A stretch of 64,000 bases of DNA. Origin: Schaalia odontolytica. GTDB lineage: Bacteria; Actinomycetota; Actinomycetes; Actinomycetales; Actinomycetaceae. Position 1 is the stretch's first letter; each line of letters starts with the position of its first letter. Both the position numbers and the translations under genes were made by a program. The stretch covers positions 1,550,001-1,614,000 of the forward strand of contig NZ_CP102197.1 in assembly GCF_024584435.1 (NCBI RefSeq), in the 5' to 3' direction. Below the pieces are notes generated by a model. The model was not told the origin of the DNA. It saw only the letters and a list, made by a program, of their open reading frames with translations, and did no database searches. Below, one piece after another: positions 7,644 to 41,143 of the stretch.

Positions 7644-7719
7644 GAGATCAATCCTCCAATGTGTTGCCGTGTTGCGTCGATGGCCCTCGACGCCTTCTGG
7701 TACACAGAACGACAGCAAA

Positions 7720-7740
7720 GTTGAGTCTATTCCACTCAAC
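7720..7740. promoter_or_regulatory. HAIR operator (HspR binding site) upstream of clpB
   Basis: GTTGAGT-N7-ACTCAAC is an inverted repeat with perfect arms and matches the known HspR inverted repeat CTTGAGT-N7-ACTCAAG with one changed base in each arm. It sits upstream of clpB on the minus strand. The same element precedes dnaK in this window. Confidence 0.92.
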
Positions 7741-7766
7741 GTCACCTTGGGGGATAGATCCGGCTC

Positions 7767-10136: not shown

Positions 10137-10174
10137 GAGTATCCTCTTTCGACGCTTCTCGCTACCTATGAGAA

Positions 10175-10209
10175 GGGGCGAGGCCGGAGAATCTCCCGAG
10201 CCTCGCCCC
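10175..10209 (-). terminator. Stem-loop terminator after the 10222-10902 gene
   Basis: GGGGCGAGGC and GCCTCGCCCC form a perfect 10-bp stem with a 15-base loop, 13 bases after the stop of the minus-strand gene. It is followed on that strand by TTCTCA rather than a long U-run. Confidence 0.65.
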
Positions 10210-10221
10210 GTGACCACCGGC

Positions 10222-10902: not shown

Positions 10903-11002
10903 GTTTGTGCCTTCCTGAAGGGGATGATGCTTAAGCATAACAACGGGGCAGCCGCAGCGAACAGTACGTCGCGACAATCGGATCAGATCTCTCTTGATCG
11001 TA

Positions 11003-11035
11003 CGCCGTTTCCTCTCCGAGGGAGGGGAAACGGCG
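11003..11035 (-). terminator. Strong stem-loop between paralogous membrane-protein genes
   Basis: CGCCGTTTCCTCTCC pairs with GGAGGGGAAACGGCG (15-bp stem, one wobble, 3-base loop). It lies directly after another hairpin at 11046-11078, giving tandem hairpins on the minus strand between the two genes. No U-run follows. Confidence 0.5.
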
Positions 11036-11045
11036 GGGCAGAAAA

Positions 11046-11078
11046 GGGCACGACCCCACAATCCTGGGGGTCGCGCCC
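11046..11078 (-). terminator. Rho-independent terminator after the 11090-11743 gene
   Basis: On the minus strand GGGCGCGACCCC and GGGGTCGTGCCC form a 12-bp stem with one mismatch, followed immediately by TTTT. It begins 11 bases after the stop codon. Confidence 0.8.
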
Positions 11079-11089
11079 TCACGGGTTCG

Positions 11090-11743
11090 TCAGCGCACGG
11101 CGCCCGTCATCGCTGCGCCCATGATGCGGCGGCGCTTGCCGTTTACCCTGACCAGAAGCACGATGCCGACGATCACGGCGATCACGCCTGCGACCCCCAC
11201 GATGGTGCCCCACAGAAATGGCATGACGAAAATCTGCGTGACGGCTTCCGGTGCCGTGTTGTACGCGATGACCTTTGTGCCGACGGTGGCAGCAACGCAT
11301 TGAAGCTTGTACTGACCTGCCGGGACGCCCGACGCAACGTACGACTTGCCGTTATCCCCATACGGGTCCAACCGGTACCTCGTGCCGCTCGAATCGATGA
11401 GCGAACACTCGGGGTCCTTACCGGCGACAGCCTTCACCGTGAAGTGTCCGTCCGCGGTCACCGTGACGACGCTGCCGTTGTCGGTGGTACCGCCCTGGAC
11501 CGATCTTCCGGGGGTGCTGGCAATCCCATAGAGCATCGCGGCGAAGAAAGTGATCGGCGCGATGACGATCATCAGAACCGCACCGAGGATGAGCGTGGCG
11601 ACGGCGGGGCCGCGGCCGGGCATCGACGGCACGCTCACCGGCGAAGGAGCACCGTAGCCCCGGGGGTCGCTGCGCGCAGCCTGACCATTGAGCGGGAACG
11701 CCGCGTGCTGATCGCCCGAGGGGCCGTAGGAGGGGTTGGACAT
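11090..11743 (-). CDS. Two-helix membrane protein, paralogue of the 10222-10902 product
   Basis: No family is recognised. The 217-residue product starts MSNPSYGPSG, with a Pro/Ala-rich cytoplasmic tail, a membrane helix at about 48-72, an extracytoplasmic beta-rich segment with cysteines in PECSLIDS and YKLQCVA (possibly a disulphide), a second helix and VRVNGKRRRI at the end. It lies 33 bases after gatD and may be the last gene of the murT-gatD unit; a terminator with a T-run follows. Function is unknown; the exposed domain resembles a small sensor or ligand-binding module but this is a guess. Confidence 0.8.
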   Translation of the reverse strand: MSNPSYGPSGDQHAAFPLNGQAARSDPRGYGAPSPVSVPSMPGRGPAVATLILGAVLMIVIAPITFFAAMLYGIASTPGRSVQGGTTDNGSVVTVTADGHFTVKAVAGKDPECSLIDSSGTRYRLDPYGDNGKSYVASGVPAGQYKLQCVAATVGTKVIAYNTAPEAVTQIFVMPFLWGTIVGVAGVIAVIVGIVLLVRVNGKRRRIMGAAMTGAVR

Positions 11744-11776
11744 GTGGGTGTCTTTCTGACTGATGGACGTGACGCG

Positions 11777-12516
11777 TTAGGGCATCCTCACGCCCGCCAG
11801 GCGCTGCGCACGCAGCTCAGCGACCCCCGGCACCTCGAGCGGAGCCAGCGTCGTGCCGGTTGCGCGCTGCAGCAGCAGGTCCGCGAGCTCGGGGTTGCGG
11901 GCGAGGACAGGGCCATGCATGTAGGTCGCTATGACGGATCCTTGAACGGCGCCGTCGTAGCACACCTCCGGTGCTTCTTCTCCCCGGGGTACGCCGTTGC
12001 CCACGCCCGAGATAACTCGGCCGAGCGGAGCCGCGTCGGGGCCAAGGACGGTGCCGCCTCCGTGGTTTTCGAAGCCGGTGAGGGTTTGCGTGAGGCATTC
12101 AAGGATAGGCGCGCAGACCAGTTCACCAATCGCGCGATGTCCCTGGGGGCGCGTGGTGATGTCGAGGACTCCCATGCCTGCGACGCGTGTGCCCCTCGCG
12201 TCCTCGTACCAGTGGCCGAGAACCTGCAGGGAGGCGCAGATGGCGAGCAGCGGACGACCCGCGTCAAGAGCGCGGGCAAGCCCCGAGGTGCCGCGGAACT
12301 TGTCTGCGCGAGCGCCTGAGCGGTGTCCTCGCCGCCGCCGAGCGTGTAGATATCGAGGCTGTCTGGAATCTCCTCATTCAGTCCAACGTGGACGATCTCA
12401 GCGTCAATGCCGCGCCTGCGGGCTCGCTCCGCCAGGATCAGCGCGTTGCCGCTGTCCCCGTAGGTGCCCAGGACCTCGGGCATCAAAACGCCGATGCGCA
12501 GCGTGGAGGCGCTCAT
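11777..12516 (-). pseudogene. gatD: GatD glutamine amidotransferase, frameshifted
   Basis: GatD supplies ammonia from glutamine to MurT for amidation of D-iso-glutamate in lipid II. The ATG at 12516 overlaps the murT stop (ATGA). The N-terminal part reads correctly (RIGVLMPEVLGTYGDSGNA to LGGGEDTAQAL) and then continues in the wrong frame. The rest of the family sequence resumes in another frame (KFRGTSGLARAL, the nucleophile region LLAICASLQVLGHWY, then ITTRPQGHRAIG and the His motif YMHGPVLARNPELADLLL) to a stop at 11777. The span of 740 bases is one short of a multiple of three, and adding one base near 12310, in a GCGC-rich run, restores a full-length protein of about 246 residues. Either the gene is broken or the assembly has a one-base error. 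Confidence 0.85.
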
Positions 12517-13823
12517 CGCGTGCCCTCCTTTCGATCGAGCAGGACCTTGAAGTCGCGCATGGCCGTGTAGTTGAGGAGCATCTCGACGCGACCGGGATCG
12601 CACGCTGCCAGGGCGTCCATGGGCAGGGGCACGAGGTCGCAGTGAACGCCCGCGTATTCGAGGCGCACGGCGAGGTCTGCGCCCCGTTCGCCGCAGGCGA
12701 GGACGCGGCGGCCGACCTGCTTGACACCGGAGAAGTCAACGTCCCAGAGCCAGGAGAGATCCTGCCCGTCGGGGACCTGTCCGTTGACGCCGATGACGAC
12801 CTGGTCGACACGCGGATCGATCATCGTCATGGCTTCCTGCCATCCGGCGGGGTTCTTGGCCAGCATGAGACGGGCGTTGCGTCCGTTGATGTCGTGGACG
12901 GAGTAGCGTCCGGCAACCTCCGTGACACCGTTGATGGCCTCGGCGGCGGTCGCAGGGTCAATGCCCATGGCGACGGCGGCGGCGACGGCCTGCGCGGCGT
13001 TACCGAGGTTCGCGCGTCCGGGGAGCTTCAGGGCGAGGGGGACGCTCGCGCCGCGAGGTCCGCGCAGCGTCGCGCGCGGGCCCTCGGGGGCGAGCTCGAC
13101 ATCCTCGAGCCACCACTGGGGCTGGGGACGGCGCTTCAGGTCGGGCAGTTCCTCCCCCTCGAAGGCCGGGATCAGGTGCCACCCGTCCTCGCTGCGCGCG
13201 ACGCGCCCCCCTCGGGGATACGCCGCACTGTCGCCTCCCCACCCGGCGCCGGCGGCGACCCACACGACGTTCGGATTGTCCGCGGCCGCAGACACGATCA
13301 GGGGGTCGTCGCAGTTGGCAACGACCGTGGCACTGGGGTGGGCGGATGCCCCTTCGCGCAAGCGGCGTTCGACCGTGCCGATCTCACCGACTCGGTCGAG
13401 CTGGTCACGCGAGAGGTTGAGGTAGACGAAAACGTCGGGATGCACGTCCGCCGCAACGGCCGGAACGTGCATCTCATCGACCTCAAGGGCGGCACGCGTT
13501 GCCCCTTCGCCTCTCATGAGCGCGGTGATGACGCCCGACGTCATGTTGTCACCGTTGGTATTGGAGGCAACCGGCCCGCCTCTTTCCAGGGCGGCTCGCA
13601 CCATCCGTGTTGTCGTCGACTTTCCATTGGTTCCCGTCACGACGACGCAGGAGTACGGGGCGGCGAGTTCCGCGAGGAATCTCGGGGAGATACGCAGGGC
13701 AACCTCGCCCCCGATCATTCCGCCGGAGCCTCGCCCAAGCGCTCGGGACGCACATCGTGCGGCTGTTCCGGCCGCCCGGGCTAGCCGCGAGCGCACCGAC
13801 AGGTGATGCGATGATTTCGTCAT
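12513..13823 (-). CDS. murT: MurT-family lipid II isoglutaminyl synthase, ligase subunit
   Basis: This 436-residue Mur-ligase-like subunit amidates the alpha-carboxyl of D-Glu in lipid II using ammonia from GatD. It shows an N-terminal basic helix, P-loop VVVTGTNGKSTT (near residue 62), the central ligase domain (VYLNLSRDQLDRVGE) and the C-terminal DUF1727 domain with WLWDVDFSGV and NYTAM. In relatives, two CxxC pairs form a zinc ribbon in the central domain; here the matching stretch reads AAYPRGGR and GWHLIP, so the cysteines are gone. The stop overlaps the start of gatD by 4 bases. Confidence 0.9.
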   Translation of the reverse strand: MTKSSHHLSVRSRLARAAGTAARCASRALGRGSGGMIGGEVALRISPRFLAELAAPYSCVVVTGTNGKSTTTRMVRAALERGGPVASNTNGDNMTSGVITALMRGEGATRAALEVDEMHVPAVAADVHPDVFVYLNLSRDQLDRVGEIGTVERRLREGASAHPSATVVANCDDPLIVSAAADNPNVVWVAAGAGWGGDSAAYPRGGRVARSEDGWHLIPAFEGEELPDLKRRPQPQWWLEDVELAPEGPRATLRGPRGASVPLALKLPGRANLGNAAQAVAAAVAMGIDPATAAEAINGVTEVAGRYSVHDINGRNARLMLAKNPAGWQEAMTMIDPRVDQVVIGVNGQVPDGQDLSWLWDVDFSGVKQVGRRVLACGERGADLAVRLEYAGVHCDLVPLPMDALAACDPGRVEMLLNYTAMRDFKVLLDRKEGTR

Positions 13824-14336
13824 GCACCCACGTTAACTCATGCGCCACCGACGCCGCGTCGCCAGGCTCAGGGCGCCCGCTCTCACCCCTCGCCAGGCCG
13901 GGGCGGGAAGGCCGGTGCCTCCCGCACCGCGACACGCCGCATGCTCGCTGACCTGCGAATATAGTTACGCACCCCATATCGGAGTTACCCACGCCATGCC
14001 ACTGTGATCGTCTCGACATATCCCTTTGGTCGATCCTTCGCCATCGCCCGCATGCACGCCGCTCACTCGCGGGTCACAATCGGCAAGATTTCAACGAAAC
14101 TCGCCGATTCTTCGACGCGCCCGCAGCCGCGAGATCACCCGAGGAGAGAGCCGACCCTTGACGCACGCTTCCCCCAACTCGATTGCACATATGTGCGAAC
14201 CGTCTCCCGGGTCGACAATCGACTATCAAAACCGGCTGTGACCTGGTAAAACTATCATCAGCAGGCGAAAGCCTGTCGCCTGTTCCAGGCTTCGATCGTG
14301 GGTCCTGTGTGCCCCCGGATCCTCGATCGAATTACG
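13824..14336. other. Intergenic region between murT and the dnaK-operon terminator
   Basis: This 513-base stretch has no convincing gene. It must contain the murT promoter. A 12-bp perfect palindrome GCACATATGTGC lies at 14185-14196. Base composition from about 13960 to 14340 is more AT-rich than the flanking genes. No RNA gene was recognised. Confidence 0.5.
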
Positions 14337-14369
14337 CTGCGGGACCCATCCGTTGGATGGGTCCCGCAG
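14337..14369 (-). terminator. Perfect 15-bp hairpin ending the dnaK operon
   Basis: CTGCGGGACCCATCC and GGATGGGTCCCGCAG form an uninterrupted 15-bp stem around a 3-base loop, 20 bases after the hspR stop. No long U-run follows, but position and strength suit a terminator. Confidence 0.75.
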
Positions 14370-14389
14370 TTCTATTGCGTCACCAATCG

Positions 14390-14944
14390 CTAGCGGCCAG
14401 GGACGATCGTCCCCTCGATGACCGCTCGCACGCCGCCACGCCTCCGCTGCCTGCCGACGACGGAGGACGCCTGCCCGTCGACAGATGTGAGCGCGGTGAG
14501 CGCGCGCATCGGGTTCCACACCGTGAGAGATCCGCCCGAGGCGACGGAGGACTCCCGCCCCTCCCAGGCTCGCTGGCCTCTCCTCATCGGCATGACCTGA
14601 CCGTCGGGGGAGGCGGCGAAGACACGGTTACGGCGAGCCTCGGAGGCGGCGACCGTGGCACGCAGGCCGTCGCACTCCGCCTCGAGCTCCTCGACGCGGC
14701 GCTCGAGGTCGAGGATGCGCCGGATTCCCGCCAGGTTGATCCCCTCTTCCTGACTCATGCGTTGCACATCGCGCAGCCTCTGCACGTCTCGCTTCGTGTA
14801 GCGCCGCCCCTTCCCCTTCGTGCGCGCCGGAATCACCAGGCCGAGACGGTCGTACTGCCGCAAGGTCTGAGGGTGCATACCGGACAGCTCCGCCGCAACG
14901 GAGATGGCGAAGGTGATCGCCTCGCCTCGCCCCTTCACTGCCAT
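14390..14944 (-). CDS. hspR: Heat-shock repressor HspR (MerR family)
   Basis: This 184-residue MerR-type repressor binds HAIR elements and, in characterised actinobacteria, uses DnaK as co-repressor to shut off dnaK and clpB. The winged HTH is at residues 10-80 (AAELSGMHPQTLRQYDRLGL, then GRRYTKRDVQRLRDV), followed by the conserved EEGINLAGIRRIL and a coiled-coil. The C-terminal tail after residue 125 is longer than in most HspR proteins and lacks recognisable features. It is the last gene of dnaK-grpE-dnaJ-hspR, 3 bases after dnaJ, so it is autoregulated with the operon. Confidence 0.95.
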   Translation of the reverse strand: MAVKGRGEAITFAISVAAELSGMHPQTLRQYDRLGLVIPARTKGKGRRYTKRDVQRLRDVQRMSQEEGINLAGIRRILDLERRVEELEAECDGLRATVAASEARRNRVFAASPDGQVMPMRRGQRAWEGRESSVASGGSLTVWNPMRALTALTSVDGQASSVVGRQRRRGGVRAVIEGTIVPGR

Positions 14945-14947
14945 GGC

Positions 14948-15997
14948 TTACTCCTGCGCCGTCTTCGCCAGGGACGCACGCACGTCGAGGTCTCCCTCGG
15001 CCTGCGCCATCTCCTTCGCAAGTCTCTTCAGCTCACGGTTCGGTTTCTCGGGGACCTGGATGGCCACGCGAGCGACCAGGTCACCGCTCACCTTGGAGGT
15101 TGAGACCCCCTTGCCACGCACCCGAATCTCGGTGCCCGACGAAGAACCCTCGGGCACCTTTACCGCGGCCGTGCCGCCGTCAATCATGGGCACGTCGATG
15201 ACGGTGCCGAGGATCGCCTCGGACACGGTGACAGGCAGCGTCACCACGAGGTCATTGCCCTCGCGCGAGTACACGGGGTGCGGCTTCACCGTCACGGTAA
15301 CCTCAAGGTCGCCGGTGGGGCCGCCGTGCAGGCCGGGCTTCCCGTGACCCTTGACGCGAACCTTCTGGCCATCCTTGATGCCGGCAGGGATGCGGACCTT
15401 GATCGGAGAGCCTCCAACCTTGATGGTCAGGGTCGCCCCATTCAGAGCCTGGCGCAAGGAGATGGACAGCTTGGCGCGCACCGTCCCGCCCTTTTCGGGC
15501 GTAGGTGCGCCGTGCGAGGCCCGGGCGCTGAAGGGAGACCCGTAGGACTCACCCCCGAATCGGGAGCTGCCACCCGCCGCGCCTCCAAAGAGACCGGAGA
15601 GGATATCCTCGAAGCCGGCCCCGCCGCCGGGCATGCCGGAGGCCTGGAAGCGCACGTTGTGGCCACCGCCGCCGAAACTGCCTCCGGCGCCGCTAAAGCC
15701 CCCGAAGAGGTCTTCGAAGCCGCCCGCTCCACCGGATCCTGCGGAGAAGCGCGCACCTCCGCCTGCCATGGCGCGAATCGCGTCGTAGCGCTTGCGTTCC
15801 TCGTCGTTGGACAGGACCGCGTATGCCTCGCCAATCTCCTTGAACCTGGTTTCGGCCGCCGTATCGCCCGGGTTCTGATCCGGGTGCCACTGCCGCGCCA
15901 GCTTACGGTAGGCCTTCGTGATGGCCTTCTTGTCCGCCTTCTTGTCGACTCCCAGGACCTTGTAGAAGTCCTTCGAGAACCACTCTTGTTCGCTCAC
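14948..15997 (-). CDS. dnaJ: DnaJ-type co-chaperone lacking the zinc-finger domain
   Basis: This 349-residue J-domain protein stimulates DnaK ATPase and delivers substrates. The J-domain occupies residues 8-75 with the HPD tripeptide in [10 protein letters not shown] long Gly/Phe region follows ([15 protein letters not shown] and later repeats, to about residue 165). The CxxCxGxG zinc-finger repeats are absent, making it a type II (CbpA/DnaJ1-like) form. The C-terminal peptide-binding domains contain [19 protein letters not shown]. It lies 40 bases after grpE. Confidence 0.95.
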
Positions 15998-30488: not shown

Positions 30489-31010
30489 TTAGCGCGTCAG
30501 GAAGTCGGCGCGCGGCTGCCCGCTGAGCGCCTTGGCAATCGTGCGCCGGAAGCGCTCGTTCATCGGGGGCAGCTGATCGCCACGGAAAAAGGACGCCTCG
30601 CTGTTCTCTCCGTCCGCGGGTCGGGGGTGACCGGTGAGCCACTGGGCGGCGAAGGCAACATCGAGGTAGGTCGTCACATCGCCGTTGTCGTAGGTGACGG
30701 GGCCGACAACCTCGACGGACAGGAGCCGCCGCACGTCGATATCAACGTCGGTCTCCTCCTTGGCCTCGCGGGCGGCAGCGAGCGCGGGCTCCTCACCGGG
30801 ATCAACGATCCCGGTGACGGGGGTCCAGGCGCCGTTGTCGCTGCGTCGCACGCACAGAATCTCGACGCTCCCGGGGTCGATCGGGCTCTCCCAGTCGATC
30901 GGCGCGTCGGCGCGGGCCGACCGCATGACGACGACCGTTGTTCCCGGCATCCACAGGGGCGCGTGACCCACGTGACGCCGAAGCTCCAGCACGAAGTCGG
31001 GTGTTGCCAT
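30489..31010 (-). CDS. NUDIX hydrolase
   Basis: The predicted protein of 173 residues hydrolyses nucleoside-diphosphate-linked substrates. The Nudix box GX5EX7REUXEEXGU is visible from GIVDPGEEP through REAKEETDVDI (near residues 67-90), with Asp replacing the final conserved Gly. An N-terminal extension (RHVGHAPLWMPGTTVVVMR) is common in actinobacterial members. The specific substrate is unknown. It lies 18 bases after the AspT-like transporter gene and may be co-transcribed. Confidence 0.93.
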   Translation of the reverse strand: MATPDFVLELRRHVGHAPLWMPGTTVVVMRSARADAPIDWESPIDPGSVEILCVRRSDNGAWTPVTGIVDPGEEPALAAAREAKEETDVDIDVRRLLSVEVVGPVTYDNGDVTTYLDVAFAAQWLTGHPRPADGENSEASFFRGDQLPPMNERFRRTIAKALSGQPRADFLTR

Positions 31011-31028
31011 GGCCCCAAGTCTATGCCG

Positions 31029-32603
31029 TCACAGGAAAGATGTGATGACGGGTATCAGGAGGATCTTCACGATGATCGCGAACGCGAAGAGGGTGGCGTA
31101 CGCCCCCTCGATGCGCTCGTCACTCACGCGCGCGTCCGCGGCCTGCAGGACGGCGGGCTGTCCGAGGAAGCCCGCAACGCCTCCGGCCGCACGCGCGGCC
31201 GAGATCCCGATGAGCTTGCCGCCAAAAGCCTGAGCGAGGCAGCAGGCGACAACCATCACGAACGCCAGCAGCGCGGCACGCCACCCCTCGGGACTGCCGA
31301 GCAGGGTCGCGAATTGGGGACCCGCATTGAGCCCCAGGGCCGCAAGGAAGAGCATGAGGCCGATCTGGCGGATGGTGAGATTGGCGGCCGCCGGAAGCGT
31401 CCACACGAGCGGTCCCGTGCGACGCAAGGCCCCCAGGAGCATGCCGACAATCAGCGGCCCCGCAGCCGCGCCAAGCTGGAAGGCTTGGCCGCCCGGCAGG
31501 GGGAAAGACACGATGCCCAGGAGGAGCCCCAGGACCATGCCGATGCCGAAAGCCATGCCGTCAACCTCGGCAACCCTCCTCTCGGAGTCTCCGAGCCACT
31601 CGGCGATGTCATCGAGCTCATCCGTGGGAACCACGACCGCCACGTGGTCGCCGAGCTGCAGGTCGAGGTCGTCGCGGGCCAACAGATCCAGGTCGCCTCT
31701 GCGCACGCGCGTGATGACGGCGCCAAAACGCTTCGTGACGTTCAACTCCGAGACGGCACGCCCCGCAACATCGGGGTTGGAGACGACGATCCGCTCGAAA
31801 GCCAGGTCGGAGCGGTCATCCTCGAGGTTGTGATCCAAGATCTCGCCGACGAGGGGGGCGGTCTCTTGGATGGACGCCGGATCACCGACCAGGACCACGT
31901 GATCCCCCGGTAGCAGGTCTTCTCCGGGAGCGATGACGCGGGTTCGTCCGTCTCGACGCAGGTAGGACAGGCGCACGCGCTGTTGACGCCAGGCGGCAAT
32001 GTCGCGCGTATTGATTCCCTGTGTCACGTGGACGCTGACCGCCTCGAGGGAGGCACCCGCCAGGGAGGGGGTGTCCTTGGGTCCCAGCCACCGCCTCGTC
32101 ACCGTGATGGTCACCACGAGGATTCCAACGATGACGCCGATCGGGTAGCCGAACGCGTAGCCGACGGCCGCGTTGGGGTCCCCCGTGACGCGCGTCGCCG
32201 TGTCGAGGGCGGGCGCCGCCGTCAGCGCTCCCGTGAACAAGCCGGATGTGAGTCCGGGCGACAGGCCGAGGACGTTCCCACCGACGAGCGCGATGAGGGC
32301 ACCCACGAGACACACGACCGTCGTGAGAGCCAGGAGGTTCGTCTGCTTGCGCAGGTCCTGGAAGAACGTCGCACCGGCCGAAATGCCGACCGCGTAGACG
32401 AAGAACGCGAGGCCCATGGCCTGGACGATCGACATGTGGGAACTCACGACCTCGGGATGCATCGCCGACACCACGAGTCCAACGAAGAGAGCGCCTGCGG
32501 CGCCGAATCGCAGCGGACCGATCCTGATGGCGCCAATGGCGGCCCCGAGCGCTACGACAAGAAAGAGCGCAAGAAGGGGTGAGGAGGTGAAGAGAGCGGC
32601 CAT
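31029..32603 (-). CDS. AspT/YidE/YbjL-family transporter with two RCK_C domains
   Basis: This 524-residue integral membrane protein is of the aspartate:alanine exchanger family. Two halves of about five or six helices (residues 1-165 and 355-524) flank a cytoplasmic part with two TrkA-C/RCK_C domains (about 190-270 and 275-355: VLLVG-like DHVVLVGDP and DHVAVVVPT). The duplicated AspT motifs FFVYAVGISAGATFF and LFLAALGLNAGPQF are both present. The ATG at 32603 follows GGCAGG; upstream sequence would run into the divergent DUF2510 gene. The substrate is unknown. Confidence 0.9.
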   Translation of the reverse strand: MAALFTSSPLLALFLVVALGAAIGAIRIGPLRFGAAGALFVGLVVSAMHPEVVSSHMSIVQAMGLAFFVYAVGISAGATFFQDLRKQTNLLALTTVVCLVGALIALVGGNVLGLSPGLTSGLFTGALTAAPALDTATRVTGDPNAAVGYAFGYPIGVIVGILVVTITVTRRWLGPKDTPSLAGASLEAVSVHVTQGINTRDIAAWRQQRVRLSYLRRDGRTRVIAPGEDLLPGDHVVLVGDPASIQETAPLVGEILDHNLEDDRSDLAFERIVVSNPDVAGRAVSELNVTKRFGAVITRVRRGDLDLLARDDLDLQLGDHVAVVVPTDELDDIAEWLGDSERRVAEVDGMAFGIGMVLGLLLGIVSFPLPGGQAFQLGAAAGPLIVGMLLGALRRTGPLVWTLPAAANLTIRQIGLMLFLAALGLNAGPQFATLLGSPEGWRAALLAFVMVVACCLAQAFGGKLIGISAARAAGGVAGFLGQPAVLQAADARVSDERIEGAYATLFAFAIIVKILLIPVITSFL

Positions 32604-32714
32604 GCCTGCCAGGGTACCCGCGCCCTTCGCCGGTGGCCGAGACCAGGAGCTGAGTCGGCGCGTTATGAAGCTCACGGATTGGCTACACTGGGGCCAGAAA
32701 CTGAAAGGATGGTC

Positions 32715-33251
32715 ATGTCTCAACCAGCACCCGGATGGTATCCAGACCCCGCCGGCACGTCGCGCCTGCGGTGGTGGAACGGCGGCATGTGGACGGAGCA
32801 ATTCCAGCCGATGCCCGCCCAGCAGGGCATGCCCTCGCAGGGTGCGCCCCACGCATCCACGTCAGCGCCCGACGGGGGGATGGGCGCCTCGCCCGCGTCG
32901 AACGGCGCCCATCTGCCTGCCAACCAGCAGGCGCCGGCGGTCTCCTCCGCCCTCTACAGCCCCGATCCAGCCTCGCCTCAGCTGCCCGATTCCGGCGTTG
33001 ACGCGCCCGGAGCGTACCAGGTGGCCGCCCAGAAGAAGAGCGGATCCAAGTGGCTGATTGGCGCGATCGCCTCCTGGGTGGCGGTGGGGATTCTGCTGGT
33101 CTCCTCGCTGATCGCGGGAGCGACCTACAAGGCCAGTGGGGAAAAGCTGTCACAGGCCGAGAACGACCGCGCCAGCGCGCAGACCGAGCTCGACAGCGCG
33201 CGGTCCGAACTCGATCAGGCCAAGCAGGAGCTTGAGGAGGCTCAGAAGTGA
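32715..33251 (+). CDS. DUF2510 membrane protein with C-terminal coiled coil (cassette 1, gene A)
   Basis: The 178-residue protein has a DUF2510 domain at residues 4-35 (PGWYPDPAGTSRLRWWNG), a Pro/Ala/Gln-rich linker, one membrane helix (about 113-137) and a C-terminal coiled coil (about 140-178, ending ELDQAKQELEEAQK). The predicted orientation puts DUF2510 inside and the coil outside. An ATG 6 bases upstream (32709) overlaps the AAAGGA site, so 32715 is preferred. Its stop overlaps the next start by 4 bases. Equivalent genes follow at 34047 and 35378. Function is unknown. Confidence 0.85.
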   Translation: MSQPAPGWYPDPAGTSRLRWWNGGMWTEQFQPMPAQQGMPSQGAPHASTSAPDGGMGASPASNGAHLPANQQAPAVSSALYSPDPASPQLPDSGVDAPGAYQVAAQKKSGSKWLIGAIASWVAVGILLVSSLIAGATYKASGEKLSQAENDRASAQTELDSARSELDQAKQELEEAQK

Positions 33252-33964
33252 GTTACATTCCCGCGACGCAATCCGCCCCGCGTCCCGCCTCCCCCGCGAG
33301 CAAGATCCTGACGATCATCGGCGCCGCCGTCGCGCTCCTCCTTCTCGTCGTCTCGGTCATGCTGGGGTTCGGAAGCCACTCGCACAAGCAGCAGGCAGCC
33401 CAGGCCGCCGAGGAGGCACAGTCCCTTCGCAACCAGACCAGGGACGTGGAGACGGAGATCGCAACCGTGCATACGCAGACCACGCAGGCCACGAACAAGA
33501 AGGAGGCGACGGCCTGGTGCGACGGCTTCACGAGCTCCGACTCCTCACCCGATGCCATCGACAAGAAGGCCCGCGCCCTGCTGAGCGCGCCGCAGCCGCG
33601 CAAGGACGCTATCGCCGAGGTCTGCCCGAAGAAGAAGGAGTTTGCCGAGGCGTTCGCGAAGGATGCCGCGGGGAGGGTCGTTGACTCAGACTTTTCGTGC
33701 ATGTCCGACGGCTCCTCCGTCACGGTGTCCGGGACAGCAACCGTGGCTGGTCCCACGCTCGCATCCCTAGGGAGCTACGACGTACGGATCGGCATCGTGG
33801 TCACGTCGGGGGCGGAAACCTCCGGGGTCGCCCCCTCGGACACGATCTCCATGACTATCCCGCAGGGGGGCAGCGCTCCGTTCTCGTCGACCGTTCCGGA
33901 TCCGTCCAACTCGACGGGCCGGTGCGCCGTCAGGACCCTCGGTCTGTGGCCGAGCGGAGTATAG
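33248..33964 (+). CDS. Signal-anchored AWC-domain protein (cassette 1, gene B)
   Basis: I know no named family. The 238-residue protein has a short cytoplasmic tail, a membrane anchor (about 20-41), a coiled coil (47-82) and a Cys-containing extracytoplasmic domain. The domain opens AWC (Cys91), with further cysteines at 126, 151 and 226, a LASLGSYDV element and a WP near the end. The GTG start overlaps the preceding stop (GTGA), so synthesis is coupled to the DUF2510 partner. Facing coiled coils in both products suggest heteromeric pairing, which is inference. Confidence 0.82.
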   Translation: MSYIPATQSAPRPASPASKILTIIGAAVALLLLVVSVMLGFGSHSHKQQAAQAAEEAQSLRNQTRDVETEIATVHTQTTQATNKKEATAWCDGFTSSDSSPDAIDKKARALLSAPQPRKDAIAEVCPKKKEFAEAFAKDAAGRVVDSDFSCMSDGSSVTVSGTATVAGPTLASLGSYDVRIGIVVTSGAETSGVAPSDTISMTIPQGGSAPFSSTVPDPSNSTGRCAVRTLGLWPSGV

Positions 33965-34046
33965 TCGGGTGGTTGCCCACAATCCCTTGGGTCACGGCAT
34001 CCCCTGACCCGCCACCCTTGTCATTCAACACGGAGAGAGACCCACG

Positions 34047-34604
34047 ATGAGCGAGCCCACAGAAGGCTGGTACGCGGACCCCAGCGGGGCCGGGCAGCTG
34101 CGCTGGTGGGACGGACACGCCTGGACGGAGTACGTCGAGCCCTACCAGGCGCAAGCCCCGCACGAAGCCGTCACCGACGAGGCGGCGTCGCCCGGCATCG
34201 AGGAGACGACCGAGGCCTATGCTCCCGCGTCCTCGGCAAGCACCCCGACTTTCGACGCGACGGCGGCCGGCCTCGAACCCGCTACGCCCTCAACGCCGAG
34301 CCCAGCGGCCCCCGCACACGCGACCGGCTCGAACGAGGACCTCGCCGACGAGGCCGACCGGAACGACCCCGGGGGGCAAGCGCGCCCCTCGGGAATGCTC
34401 AAGTGGATCCTCGGCTGCGCTGCCTCGTGGCTGCTCGTCGTGGCGTTCATCGCCGTCCTCGCCCTCGCGTGGTCCCACTTGGGCCCCAGCGGCCGCATCC
34501 ACGAGGACGCCAAGGCGCGAGCCGAGAAGGCTCAGCAGGAGCTCGATACCGCCCGATCCACCCTTGAGGACATCAACCGGCAGATCGAGGAGGCCAACAA
34601 GTGA
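34047..34604 (+). CDS. DUF2510 membrane protein with C-terminal coiled coil (cassette 2, gene A)
   Basis: The 185-residue paralogue of the 32715 gene has DUF2510 at residues 4-35 (EGWYADPSGAGQLRWWDG), an acidic Ala/Thr/Pro-rich linker, a membrane helix (about 118-143) and a coiled coil (about 152-185, ending LEDINRQIEEANK). A GGAGAGAG site precedes the ATG. Its stop overlaps the following gene by 4 bases, as in the other cassettes. The linker has diverged most, the two ends least. Confidence 0.85.
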   Translation: MSEPTEGWYADPSGAGQLRWWDGHAWTEYVEPYQAQAPHEAVTDEAASPGIEETTEAYAPASSASTPTFDATAAGLEPATPSTPSPAAPAHATGSNEDLADEADRNDPGGQARPSGMLKWILGCAASWLLVVAFIAVLALAWSHLGPSGRIHEDAKARAEKAQQELDTARSTLEDINRQIEEANK

Positions 34605-35296
34605 ACACCGCCCCCGCTCCCCTTCGCGCCGCAACCGTCGCGGGTGCGATCCTCGCCGTCATCTTCATCATTCTGTCCGCCGTCGTCGGCGGCATCAACG
34701 CCTGGCGCTCCCAGTCCTCATCCGCCTATGAAGCCCAGGCCACCAAGGCTCAGTCCGACAAGGCGGGAGTCGACGAGCAGATCACGGAGGCCAAGGCGCG
34801 CCTGGACGCGGCGAGCGTCCGCAAGGACGCGAAGGCGTGGTGCGACTCCATCAATCGAGACACGGCCTCCTCCATTCGAGACGCCATCAAGACCTACGAT
34901 TCGGCGACGTCAGCTGTCAAGGAAGCGATTCACGAGGAGTGCAGCGCGAAGGAGACCCTCGCCAATGCCCAACGCACGGCCTCTGACTCTGACTTCACGA
35001 TCACCATGGGCGAATGCACGACAGACGAGACGACCACCACGGTCACCGGCACCTTCTCCGTCAACGCGTCAAGCTCCATCGCGTCGCTGGGCTCTCTCGA
35101 CGTCACCATCGTGGGATACACAGCGGACAAGGGCGCCAGCTTCAACCCATCGACTCCCTACCAGGGAACGACGACGATCGCCGTCACGCCGGGGGCTTCC
35201 ATGCCCTTCACGGTGAGCGTGCCATACGATCCGGCGACGAGCGCGACCACCGAGTGCGTCGCGACGATGCACAAGTGGTGGCCTACCAACATGTAA
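34601..35296 (+). CDS. Signal-anchored AWC-domain protein (cassette 2, gene B)
   Basis: The 231-residue paralogue of the 33248 product has a membrane anchor (about 12-34), a coiled coil (about 38-72) and an extracytoplasmic domain with AWC (Cys81) and cysteines at 114, 139 and 219. It shares SIASLGSLDV and a terminal WWP with cassette 1. Cys spacing between the first three positions is 33 and 25, against 35 and 25 in cassette 1. The GTG start overlaps the upstream stop. Confidence 0.82.
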   Translation: MNTAPAPLRAATVAGAILAVIFIILSAVVGGINAWRSQSSSAYEAQATKAQSDKAGVDEQITEAKARLDAASVRKDAKAWCDSINRDTASSIRDAIKTYDSATSAVKEAIHEECSAKETLANAQRTASDSDFTITMGECTTDETTTTVTGTFSVNASSSIASLGSLDVTIVGYTADKGASFNPSTPYQGTTTIAVTPGASMPFTVSVPYDPATSATTECVATMHKWWPTNM

Positions 35297-35377
35297 AGTC
35301 GCGGTGGGATGACTCACCACCGAGGACGGTTCCGCGCTGAATTAGGATTGTGGGGACACAGTGAAAGGAGCTTCCCC

Positions 35378-35788
35378 ATGAGCACCCCCGTTCCCGGTTG
35401 GTACGCCGATCCGGCAGGCAGCCCCCAGCTCCGCTGGTGGGATGGCACGCAATGGACGCAGCAGTACCGTCCCGCCAACTCTGAGCAGGCGAGCCCAAAC
35501 GCGCAAGCGAATGCAGCACCCGCATCCCAGGTTGCGGCCCAGGGGCCCGCAACCGCTCAGGGCGCCGCCTCCGGCTACACCCCCGTCGCCGCCAAGCCAC
35601 GCACCAAGGCGACCGGCGGCCAGATAGCGATCGCCGTTCTCTCCTCAGTCCTCGTCATCGTTTTCGGCGTGACCGCGCTACTCTCCGCGGGACTCTTCAT
35701 CCAGAAGGGGCGGGACTACCAGCGCGTTGAAAGCGACCTGCAGCAGGCGCAGCAAGAGCTTGAGCAGGCCAAGGAGGGATCCAAGTGA
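35378..35788 (+). CDS. DUF2510 membrane protein with C-terminal coiled coil (cassette 3, gene A)
   Basis: This 136-residue paralogue is the shortest of the three. DUF2510 is at residues 4-35 (PGWYADPAGSPQLRWWDG), followed by a Gln/Ala linker, a membrane helix (about 80-106) and a coiled coil (about 110-133, LQQAQQELEQAKEGSK). AAAGGAG lies 8 bases before the ATG. Its stop overlaps the next start (GTGA). The tandem order and identical joining of genes support triplication of a two-gene unit. Confidence 0.85.
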   Translation: MSTPVPGWYADPAGSPQLRWWDGTQWTQQYRPANSEQASPNAQANAAPASQVAAQGPATAQGAASGYTPVAAKPRTKATGGQIAIAVLSSVLVIVFGVTALLSAGLFIQKGRDYQRVESDLQQAQQELEQAKEGSK

Positions 35789-36537
35789 GCGATCAGCACA
35801 CCCCGGCGCCGAGCACTCCCGCCGCACCGGCCCCTCTCGTAGCCACGACACCCGCTCGTGAGACGTCCAAGCCCGCAAAGAGCAAGGGACTGTCGATCTT
35901 CAACCGCGTCGCCCTCACACTTATCGTCGTGCTCCTCGCGCTGACGATCGGTCTCTTCGCAGGCGCCGCCCAAAGGAATAAGGCCACGGAAAGGATGCGC
36001 GACGAGATCGAGACGGTCCGCGATCAGACCGAGCAGGTGGCCGCCGCCTCGATAGCGCCCGCCTGGTGCGAGAAGGTCACCGCCGCCAACGCCGACGGGA
36101 TGAAGGACATCTACCAGGAGTACAACCACGCATCCCAACAGGTGAAGGACGCCATCGACAAGCAGTGCGCAACGCGCGTTGACATCGCTCGCATGGTGAG
36201 CAGCCAGCAGGCGGACGCCGCCTTCGATACGTCGAACAGCAGCTGCGCGATCGCCGCGTCCGGTACATCCATCCACTGCTCTGTTGACGTCAAGCCGGCC
36301 AGCGACGGCATCAAGTCGCAGCTGGCGAAGTTCTCGTCAACGACCGTGACGCTGGAGATGTGGTTTGATGACGGGCCCCTGTCCATCACCTTCAACCCGA
36401 AGCATAAGATCGACAACGTCGCCACGGCCACCCTCGACTCCTCCGGCAGCGGAACCGTGGAGTTCGATGCCGACTACGACCCCAGCTGGGGTCAGAAGTA
36501 CGGAATCGGAGTGGTCTCGTTCTTCCCGAACGAGTAG
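35785..36537 (+). CDS. Signal-anchored AWC-domain protein (cassette 3, gene B)
   Basis: The 250-residue third copy has a Pro/Thr/Ala tail, a membrane anchor (about 40-62), a coiled coil (about 65-88) and the AWC domain with cysteines at 95, 128 and 154 (spacing 33 and 26). The fourth cysteine is at 165 rather than near the C-terminus, so this copy is the most diverged. The end reads VVSFFPNE, echoing the WP-containing ends of the other copies. Function is unknown. Confidence 0.82.
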   Translation: MSDQHTPAPSTPAAPAPLVATTPARETSKPAKSKGLSIFNRVALTLIVVLLALTIGLFAGAAQRNKATERMRDEIETVRDQTEQVAAASIAPAWCEKVTAANADGMKDIYQEYNHASQQVKDAIDKQCATRVDIARMVSSQQADAAFDTSNSSCAIAASGTSIHCSVDVKPASDGIKSQLAKFSSTTVTLEMWFDDGPLSITFNPKHKIDNVATATLDSSGSGTVEFDADYDPSWGQKYGIGVVSFFPNE

Positions 36538-36554
36538 CCCGTTCCCTCTCCGGC

Positions 36555-36585
36555 GGTCCCGGTACCCCCTGCGGGTGCCGGGACC
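36555..36585 (+). terminator. Stem-loop after the third cassette
   Basis: GGTCCCGGTACCC pairs with GGGTGCCGGGACC (13 bp, one wobble) 17 bases after the stop. No comparable strong hairpin separates the cassettes from each other, so all three may be read as one unit. Confidence 0.6.
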
Positions 36586-36650
36586 ACTCGCACTGGGGCG
36601 AGGGCCGCCTGGCGGTGGTTAACCCGGCCTGCGGCCGCGCGCTGCGGCGT

Positions 36651-37073
36651 TCAGTAGTGCTCGTGGGAGTCGTAGCCGCGCAACCGATCCAACTCGCGGC
36701 GCTCCTTCTTGGTGGGACGCCCGCTCCCCTTCTCGCGCGTGGCGACGGGAATGTGAACGCGGGGACGTTCCGGCGTGCGATCATCGTAGGCCGTGCGTGC
36801 CTGAGGATACGACAGGCGCCGAGCCAACAGCAGGACGACACCGAGGATGCGGTCGAAGCCCTCGACCCGCAGTCGCACCTCGTCCCCCACCCGGAGCTTG
36901 TGAGCGGCTTTGACCGCCTCCCCGTTCACGCGCACGTGCCCGGCCCGCACGGCCGCAGTGGCCTGCGAGCGAGACTTGAGCTGGCGCGTGGCCCACAGCC
37001 AGGTGTCGACCCGTACGCTCGTTGCGGCCAGCGCGCCCGGGGGGATGGTCACCGTTTCGGGGGTATCGCTCAT
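36651..37073 (-). CDS. S4-domain RNA-binding protein (Hsp15-like)
   Basis: This 140-residue protein has an S4 RNA-binding domain at about residues 20-70 (VRVDTWLWATRQLKSRSQATA, then AGHVRVNGEAVK and VGDEVRL) and a basic tail with GSGRPTKKERRELDRLR. Hsp15 relatives bind stalled 50S subunits; this role is assumed by homology. It lies 7 bases after the permease gene on the same strand. Confidence 0.92.
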   Translation of the reverse strand: MSDTPETVTIPPGALAATSVRVDTWLWATRQLKSRSQATAAVRAGHVRVNGEAVKAAHKLRVGDEVRLRVEGFDRILGVVLLLARRLSYPQARTAYDDRTPERPRVHIPVATREKGSGRPTKKERRELDRLRGYDSHEHY

Positions 37074-37080
37074 GGGAGCC

Positions 37081-39801
37081 CTAATTGATGCGGCGCAGGC
37101 GCCTCTGATGGTGGGGCGTCAGGACGATGGCAACCAGCGCGCACAGCAGGGGCATCCCGATGAGCATCCCTGCCAGCGCCCCCCACGGCACGACCGGCCA
37201 GAGGGTTCCCAGCGTGGGGAAGATGCCGGATCGGGCGAAGGTGATGACCGCGAGGACTCCGACGACGAGTCCCGACAGGACGGCCGTCGGGATCGCGTTG
37301 AGTGCCAGCACGATGCCCTGCCAGGTGGTCACGTGCCGGCGCATGGCCGGGGCCGCCCCAATCGCGTCGAGGGTATCGAGGTCCGGCCGCATGTCGGAGG
37401 CGGACAGGGCGACGACAAGCGCGACCGTGGCCCCCGCAGCAACGATAGCGATGATCGCCGCGACGTAGGGCAGGACGAGGGAGCGCACCGTCGGGACGAT
37501 AACCTGGGCGGATGCTCCCGGCACCTGGCGCGCAATGGTTGCCTGGAAGGCGGAGGCCTCCATGGGACCCACGGGCTTGTCGATGCTCAGCAGTTGGCCC
37601 AGCGGCAGCGACTGGAGGCCCAGGGCCGAGGCCGCAGTCGGCGACAGCACCATGACGTTGATTCGCGTCAGAGGCGAGGCCGCGAAGGACCGGGTCGTCA
37701 TGACGTGCGCGTCGGGTAGCGCATCGTCGGAGGCGCCGGCTGCCTTCGCCTCCGCAATGTCGCTCATATCGAGGCTGCGCAGCTGCACCTGGCCCGCGCC
37801 GTCAATGTACGCCGGATCGGGAACAAGCACCCCTCCGGCGTTGAGCGTCGCGACGGCGCGCACCATGTCGTCGCCGCTGAGGTATCCCGCCTGACGCAGG
37901 AACGTCCCGTCGTCCACCATGTAGGCCAGGTCCAGCTCGGCCATGGTGCCCATGTCGGGGGCGAGCGTGAAGGTTGAGCCGTCGAAGGGCGACACGGCCT
38001 CGACCATGCGCGTCGGTCCGCCCGGACCGCTGTTCCAGACCATGCCGTTGAGCACCGCCTCAGAGGTGATCGTTCGCTCCCCGTCGACCGCCTCGTAGGC
38101 GGCATTGAGAAGCTCGCGGGAACGCTTCACGGAGTCGGTCTTGTCGGTGGTCGAGATGAAGACCTGACCGCGCTGGCCGACGTGGGGACGAGAGTTCCAG
38201 CCGGCCTCGTTGGAGGAGGACAGGGTGATGAGGAGCCCGCAGGCGACGAAGACGGTCGTCAGGATCGAGGCCATGGCCGGGAACGTGCGATGCCCGTTGC
38301 GCACCGCGTCGCGCAACGCGAGGCGCATGCTCATGGAAGCGCGCCCGTGCGGAACACGCCAGCGCGTGAAGACATAGGGAATCGAGCCAATGAGGCCGAC
38401 CTCCACGAGCGCGACTCCGGCGACGAGGGCAAGAATCGAACCGAGCCACGCGGCAATCCCCAGGAGTGGCAGGCCGGCCAGGAGGGCAATCGGGTAGATC
38501 ATGCGACGGCGCACCAGCCGGGAGGGTTCCCACACCCTCCCGCCGATGACGGCGGAGGTGTCGATGCGGGAGGAGGTGTGCGCGGGCGACACGGAGGCGA
38601 GGAGGGAGAGCAGGATCGGCAGAAGCGCGGACAGCGCCAGAGGCCACCAGGGCACGATCCCGATGCCCAGGCCGGACCACAGCCCGATGCCAACCATGGA
38701 GGCGGCGGACAGGAGCACCGAGAAGACGACAGAGTAGGAGCCGATGACGAAACCGTGGGCGATCGTCAGGCGCCGCCCGTCGCTGCGGTCTCCACCGTTG
38801 GCGACGATCATGGCGGCGGTACGCATGACCGAGCGCTGGGCGACCGTGTAGAGGGGCGAGATGAGGAGGATCATCTCGGTGAGGATGAGGAGGATACCGG
38901 CGACGAGGAGCAGGTACTGCCAGGGACTCGCGGTGCGCGTGGATCGGGGCGCCTCGTACTGGGCGATCTGCGCGGGCAGGGCCGAGGCATCGGGTGGGCT
39001 GGCAAGCACGTCGCGGGAGAGAACGGAAAAGCCCGAGGCGTTGAGCTCGCGGACCTTCGCCCACGAGACGGGCGCGGGGCCGGTGACATACCAGGCCGTC
39101 TGCGTCCTCCCGGCGACCGCGAGGCGGTCGATCGGCAACGTGCCGTCACCAACGATCGTGCGTGACGAGCCGCCGATGATTGCGTCAATGACGACGCTAC
39201 CGGACAGCGATTGGGTGGTGCGTTCCTTGGCGAGCGTGAGCGACAGGCTGAGAGTGTCTCCCTCGGAGGCCTTCAGCGTGCGGGCAACATCCTCAGAGAT
39301 CACGGCATGATCGGCTGCGAGCGCGCCGTGGCGTCCTCCCGCTTCGACCCGCGGAGCGTCCAGGGATGCCGTCTGGGTACCGGCGTCCACGGTGATGGCG
39401 GTGCCATCTTGCGCGGTGAGCCGCAGCTGATAGAGGGTGTCAACGGCGATCAGTTGGTCGCCCGGTGGCACCCATGCCGTGAGCGTGTCCATGCCGACGC
39501 GCACCTCCTCGTCGGAGGAGGTCTTCGAGAGCCTATCGGCCGTAAAGTCCTGCTCGAGGGCCGTCGAGGAACGGTGTAGCGTCACCGCCTGAACCGCTGA
39601 ATCGTGTCCGAGCCAGGAAGCCGCCTGGTAACGCTGGGACGTCGTCACGTCCCAGAAGGTGATGGCGGCGATGGCGATGATGATGGGAAGCGAGATGAGA
39701 ATGACCGCGGCGAGCGTGCGCCCAAGGCTTTGGCGCGCGTCGCGAGAGGCGATGCGGAGTACCACTCCCCATCGCCTCATTCGCGCGCTCACTCGACTCA
39801 T
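37081..39801 (-). CDS. FtsX-like ABC transporter permease
   Basis: This 906-residue permease has an N-terminal helix, a large extracytoplasmic domain, a cluster of central helices (about 330-520), a second exterior domain and C-terminal helices, the arrangement of duplicated FtsX/MacB-type exporters. The ATG at 39801 shares one base with the stop of the ATPase gene (TGATG), so they are coupled. With the ATPase and PadR regulator it forms a three-gene unit; such units commonly export peptides or confer resistance to cell-wall antibiotics. Substrate unknown. Confidence 0.9.
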   Translation of the reverse strand: MSRVSARMRRWGVVLRIASRDARQSLGRTLAAVILISLPIIIAIAAITFWDVTTSQRYQAASWLGHDSAVQAVTLHRSSTALEQDFTADRLSKTSSDEEVRVGMDTLTAWVPPGDQLIAVDTLYQLRLTAQDGTAITVDAGTQTASLDAPRVEAGGRHGALAADHAVISEDVARTLKASEGDTLSLSLTLAKERTTQSLSGSVVIDAIIGGSSRTIVGDGTLPIDRLAVAGRTQTAWYVTGPAPVSWAKVRELNASGFSVLSRDVLASPPDASALPAQIAQYEAPRSTRTASPWQYLLLVAGILLILTEMILLISPLYTVAQRSVMRTAAMIVANGGDRSDGRRLTIAHGFVIGSYSVVFSVLLSAASMVGIGLWSGLGIGIVPWWPLALSALLPILLSLLASVSPAHTSSRIDTSAVIGGRVWEPSRLVRRRMIYPIALLAGLPLLGIAAWLGSILALVAGVALVEVGLIGSIPYVFTRWRVPHGRASMSMRLALRDAVRNGHRTFPAMASILTTVFVACGLLITLSSSNEAGWNSRPHVGQRGQVFISTTDKTDSVKRSRELLNAAYEAVDGERTITSEAVLNGMVWNSGPGGPTRMVEAVSPFDGSTFTLAPDMGTMAELDLAYMVDDGTFLRQAGYLSGDDMVRAVATLNAGGVLVPDPAYIDGAGQVQLRSLDMSDIAEAKAAGASDDALPDAHVMTTRSFAASPLTRINVMVLSPTAASALGLQSLPLGQLLSIDKPVGPMEASAFQATIARQVPGASAQVIVPTVRSLVLPYVAAIIAIVAAGATVALVVALSASDMRPDLDTLDAIGAAPAMRRHVTTWQGIVLALNAIPTAVLSGLVVGVLAVITFARSGIFPTLGTLWPVVPWGALAGMLIGMPLLCALVAIVLTPHHQRRLRRIN

Positions 39802-40538
39802 CAATTCCCTGGTGCTGTGTCTGCGAGCAGATCCCTGAGCGTGTCTCCACGCGATCGATCGACGATGCGACCGTCGCGCAGGAAGACCGTCCGATCTGCC
39901 CATGCGGCCATTCGGGCCTCATGAGTCACGAGAATACCGGCTACTCCCGCATCTATGTGATCACGCAACACCAACATGATCTGTTCTCCCGTGTGGGAGT
40001 CGAGAGCCCCGGTCGGCTCGTCGGCAAGAATGACCGAACGGTTACCCACGAGGCCGCGGGCAATGGCGATCCGCTGACGTTGGCCGCCCGAAAGCCTCTC
40101 GGGGAAACGGTCGGCAAGGTCGGCGACGCCGACCTCCTCGAGCGCGGCCATGGCTGCTTCGCGCACCTTCGCGGGGCTGACCCCGTCCAGCTGAAGAGGC
40201 ATCTCAACGTTCTCGAGGGCCGACAGGGAAGGAATGAGGTTGTAGTCCTGAAAGACGTAGCCGATCGAGCGACGGCGCACCTGCGCGCGGCGAACCGCGT
40301 CCATCGTGGCCAGATCGATACCGTTGATGTACACGCTGCCGCACGTCGGGCGCTCAAGCCCGCCCGCGATCGACAACAGCGTTGACTTACCCGATCCCGA
40401 AGGGCCCATAACAGCGAGAAGCTCGCCGGGTGCGACCTCAAGGTCGATCCCGTCGAGCGCTCTCACTCGGATGCCGTCGGCGCCAAACTCGTGTCCGACA
40501 CCCGCCATCCTGATCGGTAGCGGAACAGGCTGGTTCAT
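39801..40538 (-). CDS. ABC transporter ATP-binding protein (MacB/LolD type)
   Basis: The 245-residue ATPase shows Walker A GPSGSGKST, Q-loop VFQDYNLIP, signature LSGGQRQRIAIARGL, Walker B VILADEPTGALD and switch His in LVTHEARMA. It energises the downstream FtsX-like permease. The ATG at 40538 is embedded in the padR stop (TGATG); a GTG three bases earlier is also possible. Confidence 0.95.
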   Translation of the reverse strand: MNQPVPLPIRMAGVGHEFGADGIRVRALDGIDLEVAPGELLAVMGPSGSGKSTLLSIAGGLERPTCGSVYINGIDLATMDAVRRAQVRRRSIGYVFQDYNLIPSLSALENVEMPLQLDGVSPAKVREAAMAALEEVGVADLADRFPERLSGGQRQRIAIARGLVGNRSVILADEPTGALDSHTGEQIMLVLRDHIDAGVAGILVTHEARMAAWADRTVFLRDGRIVDRSRGDTLRDLLADTAPGN

Positions 40539-41143
40539 CACACCCCGGCGCGCTCCGACATACCTGCCTCGGCCTGAGACCAGTTCATCATGCGACCCTT
40601 CGCGGCGGCGAAGGCGGCGCGGCGCGCGGCCTCGGACACCGCACCGGACTCGATGTGGTCAAGCCAGTTGAGTTCTGCCTCAAGGTCAAAAATGTGACGC
40701 TCAAGGATCAGCTTCCAGGCGAGCTCACCCTCATCGGCGGAGGCCTTCAGCCGGGTGACATCGCGCAGGGAACCCAGGGTTGCGCGGCGCTGGGTCTGAA
40801 TCATGGATTCGACGTCGACCGTGGGGTCAGCAGCGGCCACGGCAAGCTTCATGACGAGCTCATCGCGCTCGGGGTGCTCGCGAGGAACAGGGGTGGACCA
40901 CCAAGCGCTGAGGACTTCGCGACCGACGTCGGTCAGCTCAAAGACCTCCGAATCGCGGCCTGCATTGGTCTCGGCGTGAGACACAACCTGGCCGTCGCGC
41001 TCGAGGCGCTGCATCGTCTGGTAGACCTGCCCAATGTTGAGCGGCCATGCTCCGCACGTCTGTTCCTCGAACATCTGCTTCAGGCGGTAGACGCCCGCGG
41101 GCTGCTGCGCAACGAGTGCCAACAGTGCATTGCGAACCGACAT
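40538..41143 (-). CDS. PadR family transcriptional regulator
   Basis: The 201-residue regulator has an N-terminal winged helix (MSVRNALLALVAQQPAGVYRL and IGQVYQTMQRLERDGQVVS) and a C-terminal helical dimerisation domain of the Vir_act_alpha_C type. GGGAGAG precedes the ATG. It is the first gene of a coupled padR-ATPase-permease unit, an arrangement in which PadR normally represses its own exporter until an inducing compound appears. Confidence 0.93.
   Translation of the reverse strand: MSVRNALLALVAQQPAGVYRLKQMFEEQTCGAWPLNIGQVYQTMQRLERDGQVVSHAETNAGRDSEVFELTDVGREVLSAWWSTPVPREHPERDELVMKLAVAAADPTVDVESMIQTQRRATLGSLRDVTRLKASADEGELAWKLILERHIFDLEAELNWLDHIESGAVSEAARRAAFAAAKGRMMNWSQAEAGMSERAGV

What the first reader, a model, noticed from the sequence alone, without database searches (positions are those of the whole stretch)
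32715..36537. Triplicated two-gene cassette: DUF2510/coiled-coil protein plus Cys-patterned AWC membrane protein
Three tandem pairs share one architecture. Gene A has an N-terminal DUF2510, one membrane helix and an exterior coiled coil. Gene B starts at a GTG overlapping the A stop and has an N-terminal anchor, an exterior coiled coil and a domain opening AWC, with Cys spacings of 35/25, 33/25 and 33/26. The matched coiled coils and translational coupling suggest that each A/B pair forms a heteromeric envelope complex, with DUF2510 as the inner module. Linkers and the fourth Cys have diverged, so the copies may be specialised. I know of no described function for this cassette. The sequence pattern is direct; the complex model is inference.
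Basis: partly seen in the sequence, partly recalled or inferred. Interest (0 to 1): 0.78.

Follow-up and report, generated by a model that had tools for sequence, protein, structure and literature searches.

The report
Paired surface proteins with swappable ectodomain
Three neighbouring gene pairs in a Schaalia-type bacterium each encode two membrane proteins that very likely work together, and the outside-facing part of one of them differs sharply between close relatives, as if it recognised something that keeps changing.

Summary
The three tandem A/B pairs are real and at the stated coordinates. A = DUF2510 + membrane helix + short coil; B = membrane helix + coil + an uncatalogued, Cys-patterned ectodomain (AWC). 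At the sensitivity used, full-length B occurs only in one genus (Schaalia; 26 of 35 genomes). Of 49 unfused B genes, 47 follow an A gene, 46 with the same 4-nt stop/start overlap; two Schaalia species encode A and B as one chain. New here: three old paralogue classes; class-2 ectodomains are conserved, classes 1 and 3 diverge fast. Between two genomes that share an 11.6-kb block at 96.5% identity, the class-1 ectodomain alone falls to 43% amino-acid identity, with breaks at its borders: allele replacement. Predicted fold of B2: helical hairpin plus Ig-like sandwich. Best reading: A/B complexes display a recognition domain that is polymorphic in class 1. The complex was not tested, the ligand is unknown, and crude dN/dS shows no positive selection in ectodomains.

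The parts
32715..33251 (+). A1: DUF2510, proline-rich linker, membrane helix, short exterior coil
33248..33964 (+). B1 (class 1): membrane helix, coil, AWC ectodomain with four Cys
33500..33964 (+). B1 ectodomain: the part that is replaced between close relatives elsewhere in the genus
34047..34604 (+). A2: DUF2510, linker, membrane helix, coil
34601..35296 (+). B2 (class 2, conserved): membrane helix, coil, AWC ectodomain; structure model made
35378..35788 (+). A3: DUF2510, linker, membrane helix, shorter coil
35785..36537 (+). B3 (class 3): shorter coil, AWC ectodomain with the fourth Cys moved to 11 residues after the third
31029..32648 (-). Neighbour, divergently transcribed: Asp-Al_Ex/TrkA_C transporter next to the cassette in 24 of 26 genomes that have B; kept in 6 of 9 that lack B

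Best explanation
Each pair encodes one envelope complex. A and B are made together (coupled translation) and associate through their membrane helices and the short coils just outside the membrane. A carries a small cytoplasmic DUF2510 domain, which is optional. B holds up an ectodomain made of a helical hairpin (one Cys-Cys link) and an Ig-like sandwich (a second link). That ectodomain is the working end: a recognition domain for something outside the cell. Class 2 binds a constant partner; class 1, and more mildly class 3, face a changing partner, so their ectodomains diverge fast and class-1 alleles are exchanged by homologous recombination while helix, coil and partner A stay. Shown: architecture, adjacency, overlap, fusions, paralogue classes, the allele replacement. 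Inferred: heteromer, disulfides, surface exposure, recognition role.
For: Adjacency in 47 of 49 unfused B genes, 46 with the 4-nt overlap (B starts were chosen by me as the start over the A stop). Single-chain fusion in two species, one open frame each, 75% identical to each other (named). In the genus 24 of 24 genomes with DUF2510 also have B. A classes follow B classes: least possible 2 changes on the A tree of 32 rows. Three B classes with support 98/94, 99/99 and 100/100. G153 versus G102: B1 helix+coil 99% identical, ectodomain 43%, while A1 is 95%, A2 99%, B2 ectodomain 99%, A3 95%, B3 ectodomain 98%; within the shared 11.6-kb block, 6 of 115 windows of 100 bases fall below 90%, five of them over the B1 ectodomain (54-83%) and one at 87%. 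AU test rejects G153+G102 as a clade for the B1 ectodomain (p 2.8e-8) and G102+G066 for the B2 ectodomain (p 0.005), both groups named after seeing trees. B1 ectodomain is less conserved than B2's in 45 of 45 genome pairs, which are not independent. The variable part leaves the presumed A-B contact unchanged.
Against: No direct evidence that A and B touch, that the Cys are bonded, or that the domain reaches the cell surface. dN/dS of B1 ectodomains is 0.26-0.41 and of class 3 0.35-0.54, not above 1: faster than class 2 (0.03-0.11) but compatible with relaxed constraint. Only one genome pair shows the replacement at full contrast; four of ten B1-bearing genomes are too far from the rest (helix+coil 22-49% identical) to separate domain from whole-gene divergence. 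Contrasts give weak support for coil co-variation. Nine of 35 genomes of the genus lack the cassette, so it is not essential.
Confidence: 0.5

Rival explanations
1. The pairs are accessory subunits or regulators of the neighbouring Asp-Al_Ex/TrkA_C transporter, with the AWC domain binding its substrate outside.
For: The transporter lies next to the cassette, divergently, in 24 of 26 genomes that have B.
Against: Six of nine genomes without B keep the close transporter; G173 has B far from it and G182 has B without a close copy; the transporter is 90% identical where B1 is 35%, so they do not evolve together.
Confidence: 0.12
2. Lineage-specific envelope proteins under relaxed constraint: classes 1 and 3 drift after duplication, and the odd B1 domain in G102/G066 is an ordinary recombination event without a recognition role.
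For: dN/dS below 1 in ectodomains; only one clear replacement; DUF2510 lost in 6 A copies and pair 3 missing in G066.
Against: Three Cys are invariant in 34 of 34 aligned members and the fourth is relocated rather than lost in class 3; reading frames stay open; class 1 is kept in all ten genomes that have three-class arrays; the replacement stops at the domain border.
Confidence: 0.25
3. FtsL/FtsB-like scaffolds: short cytoplasmic end, membrane helix and exterior coil pairing as in divisome proteins, with an added domain.
For: Same topology; weak NCBIfam FtsL matches in 2 of 34 members (best E 0.0033 and 0.011).
Against: All such matches lie far under the curated cut-offs and cover helix+coil only; helix+coil segments match many unrelated proteins (34 of 197 genomes).
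Confidence: 0.08

Closest known systems
DUF2510 membrane proteins (PF10708)
   Same: N-terminal DUF2510 at the membrane, proline-rich linker, in actinobacteria; A1-A3 are over the Pfam cut-off.
   Different: In 35 of 165 other genomes of the family DUF2510 occurs without a full-length AWC domain; the few I read end in other domains or carry DUF2510 at the C-terminus. The split into two coupled genes and the AWC ectodomain were seen only in this genus.
Ig-like sandwich domains of surface and secreted proteins
Polymorphic surface recognition loci in general (recalled, from no call)
   Same: A variable outside domain on a conserved anchor, exchanged by recombination.
   Different: No known family, no ligand, no partner gene that varies with it.

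Membership tests
DUF2510 (PF10708), gene A | Score over Pfam's gathering cut-off (24 bits) | tested here: met
   46.4, 40.1 and 52.0 bits
Any Pfam or NCBIfam family, gene B | Score over a curated cut-off | tested here: not met
   Best for B1: DUF4330, 21.4 bits against 27.6; no NCBIfam match near its cut-off for B1-B3. Of 34 aligned members, 2 match Pfam DUF2510, the two fusions; no other listed family matched more than 3 members (first 25 families shown)
Anti-phage defence proteins (PADLOC) | Profile match over the protein's functional domain | tested here: inconclusive
   B2 matches LeoB at E 1.7e-5 over residues 13-121 (helix, coil, start of AWC), A1 matches LmuB at 0.0096; the other five of seven proteins none. 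No curated cut-off is given; coil matches are unspecific here
Rz-like spanin / superinfection exclusion (PHROGs) | Family match beyond helix and coil | tested here: not met
   Weak matches confined to helix+coil for B1 (best Rz-like E 0.0039; exclusion 0.0083) and A2 (0.00098)
FtsL-type divisome protein | Score over NCBIfam cut-off | tested here: not met
   B1: 15.3 against 50 and 11 against 55 bits
Ig-like fold | Structural match clear of background | tested here: inconclusive
A-B heteromeric complex | Physical association | not testable with these tools
   Only single chains could be modelled; one model made

The most novel reading that the evidence does not exclude
The pairs are a polymorphic cell-surface recognition system of Schaalia: class 1 is an exchangeable receptor-like domain whose alleles are kept diverse by something that preys on, attaches to or discriminates between strains, such as phages, the Saccharibacteria epibionts known to live on Schaalia odontolytica, host defences, or sister cells. 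The epibiont link is my speculation; no call tests it.
Probability: 0.25. Interest if true: 0.85.

Novelty: new variant of a known kind. Interest (0 to 1): 0.55.

Why it matters
DUF2510 is a common actinobacterial domain; the paper library holds no paper naming it (0 hits for DUF2510 and PF10708). Here it sits in a genus-wide, strictly paired system with a defined ectodomain, natural fusions and natural DUF2510-less copies, which makes its role testable. The replaced B1 domain marks where these oral bacteria may face selection from outside. [quoted passage not shown]

Tried and rejected
Considered and dropped: defence or lysis protein (PADLOC and PHROG matches confined to helix+coil); regulation by a known RNA (Rfam: 0 matches in 31000-38000); internal promoters or terminators (0 sigma-70-like, 0 terminator-like sites in 32500-36700, against 0.2 and 2.3 expected). 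Hairpins fold in the gaps B1-A2 and B2-A3 of the window (-26.5, -26.8 kcal/mol), but the B1-A2 gap of G146 gives only -6.1, so no conserved element is claimed. A strong fold follows B3 (-66.6 over 113 nt).

Led nowhere: the full-length profile in the class hit 34 of 197 genomes, in the rows shown apart from the own genome almost only over helix+coil, so I used the ectodomain alone. In one search that profile also matched the helix+coil of several A proteins (to E 1.1e-8 without reading through a stop), stronger than the best class background (4.9e-6): a hint that A and B helices are related, not a proof. Distances on A and B trees correlate within classes (0.54-0.81), but shared species history would do this too. 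Literature searches gave no paper on this locus; most hits were listings only.

Rows dropped: G186's second, identical B copy from the tree; G173 and that copy from the A-B comparisons (no A); 51 of the proteins found were used with the window's own for the structure model, with fragments and near-copies left out.

Full report
What is there. Six genes in the order A1-B1-A2-B2-A3-B3 lie on the + strand at 32715-36537. A proteins carry DUF2510 over Pfam's cut-off, a proline-rich linker, one membrane helix and a short coil that ends the protein. B proteins have an N-terminal membrane helix, a coil and an ectodomain that opens AWC. No family over its cut-off was found for B in Pfam or NCBIfam, and PHROG matches are confined to helix and coil or are weak.

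Distribution. With the ectodomain alone as a profile (alignment A4, 34 rows), 27 of 213 genomes of the taxonomic family match: 26 of the 35 genomes of the window's genus, plus one partial match (G029, E 9.8e-4). In the class, 4 of 296 match: the own genome and three partial matches to the C-terminal sheet in one other genus. Two of the loci were identified by record title as Schaalia sp. Marseille-Q2122 and Schaalia canis; among proteins found with B2, the two with an organism name read Actinomyces sp. ICM58 and Schaalia odontolytica. DUF2510 is broader: 59 of 200 genomes of the family, 24 in the genus and 35 of 165 outside. All 24 also have B; G165 and G173 have B without DUF2510; nine genomes have neither.

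Pairing. Of 49 unfused B genes in 25 genomes plus the two fused ones (one genome, G161, has both), 47 have directly upstream an open frame of 100 aa or more with a membrane helix; in 46 the stop and a GTG or ATG start overlap by 4 nt, in one there is a small gap. B starts are inferred: for several genes the open frame extends further upstream. The exceptions are G173 (a remote member) and one of two identical copies in G186, which lie 2,000 bases apart and may be an assembly duplicate. In G161 and G163 one open frame runs DUF2510-linker-helix-coil-AWC. Six of 47 A proteins lack DUF2510: A3 of G146, G009, G153 and G102, one class-3 A of G085, and the A of G165; in G196 the first DUF2510 lies in another frame upstream, perhaps a frameshift. 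What is constant is helix, coil and overlap.

Evolution. The ectodomain tree (50 rows) has three classes: B1 (10 rows, 98/94), B2 (10, 99/99), B3 (12, 100/100). On the A tree (32 rows, 73 columns) A2 and A3 are single groups (100/100, 100/98) and A1 is the remainder, so pairs were inherited as units. Coil lengths agree between partners (A 44-46 with B 51-55 in classes 1 and 2; A 33-35 with B 28-34 in class 3; Spearman 0.78, n = 47), but with independent contrasts r is 0.37 (p 0.011) and signs agree in only 11 of 21: largely one event.

Polymorphism. G153 and G102 share a block of 11.6 kb at 96.5% identity. Of 115 windows of 100 bases starting at 4401-15801 in that block (L065), 109 are at 90% or more; five over the B1 ectodomain lie at 54-83% and one at 6701 lies at 87%. 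In protein, B1 helix+coil is 99% identical and its ectodomain 43%; all other cassette parts are 95-100%. The drop begins at the AWC border and ends at the gene's end. G146 shares G153's type (90%), G066 shares G102's (78%), G009 has a third (64% to G153). Tree tests reject G153+G102 as a clade for the B1 ectodomain (p 2.8e-8), though named post hoc. Against selection: dN/dS is 0.26-0.41 for B1 ectodomains, 0.35-0.54 for class 3, 0.03-0.11 for B2 (six genome pairs); values above 1 occur only for A1 and A3 of the closest pair, where changes are very few. Elevated dS in the B1 ectodomain (1.37 against 0.02-0.17 in the other parts compared for that pair, apart from class-3 pieces at 0 to 0.07) fits import of a divergent allele.

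Mechanism. I read the pairs as envelope complexes that hold up a recognition domain, with class 1 facing a changing partner. The swap leaves A1 and the B1 helix+coil unchanged, so the variable partner is probably not A. Rivals are a transporter accessory (24 of 26 adjacent, but 6 of 9 B-less genomes keep the transporter), relaxed drift, and a divisome-like scaffold.

Noticed in passing
31029-32648 (-): Asp-Al_Ex/TrkA_C transporter with a second, distant paralogue in most genomes of the genus (about 35% identical).
   Followed up: partly
37081-41143 (-): Large permease-like protein without a Pfam family (905 aa), an ABC ATPase and a PadR regulator; conserved next to the cassette in many relatives.
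   Followed up: no
L064 (G066): Pair 3 is missing as a whole between otherwise conserved neighbours, compared with G102.
   Followed up: no
L083 (G186): Two identical B copies 2,000 bases apart, one without an A gene: possible assembly duplicate.
   Followed up: no
L142 (G165), 5144-5590 (-): An open frame ends in a piece like the last part of the AWC ectodomain (C..WWPT), away from the cassette.
   Followed up: no
L118, L119: Secreted-looking Ser/Gly-rich proteins of another actinobacterial genus whose C-terminal domain partly matches the AWC sheet with a similar Cys pair.
   Followed up: partly
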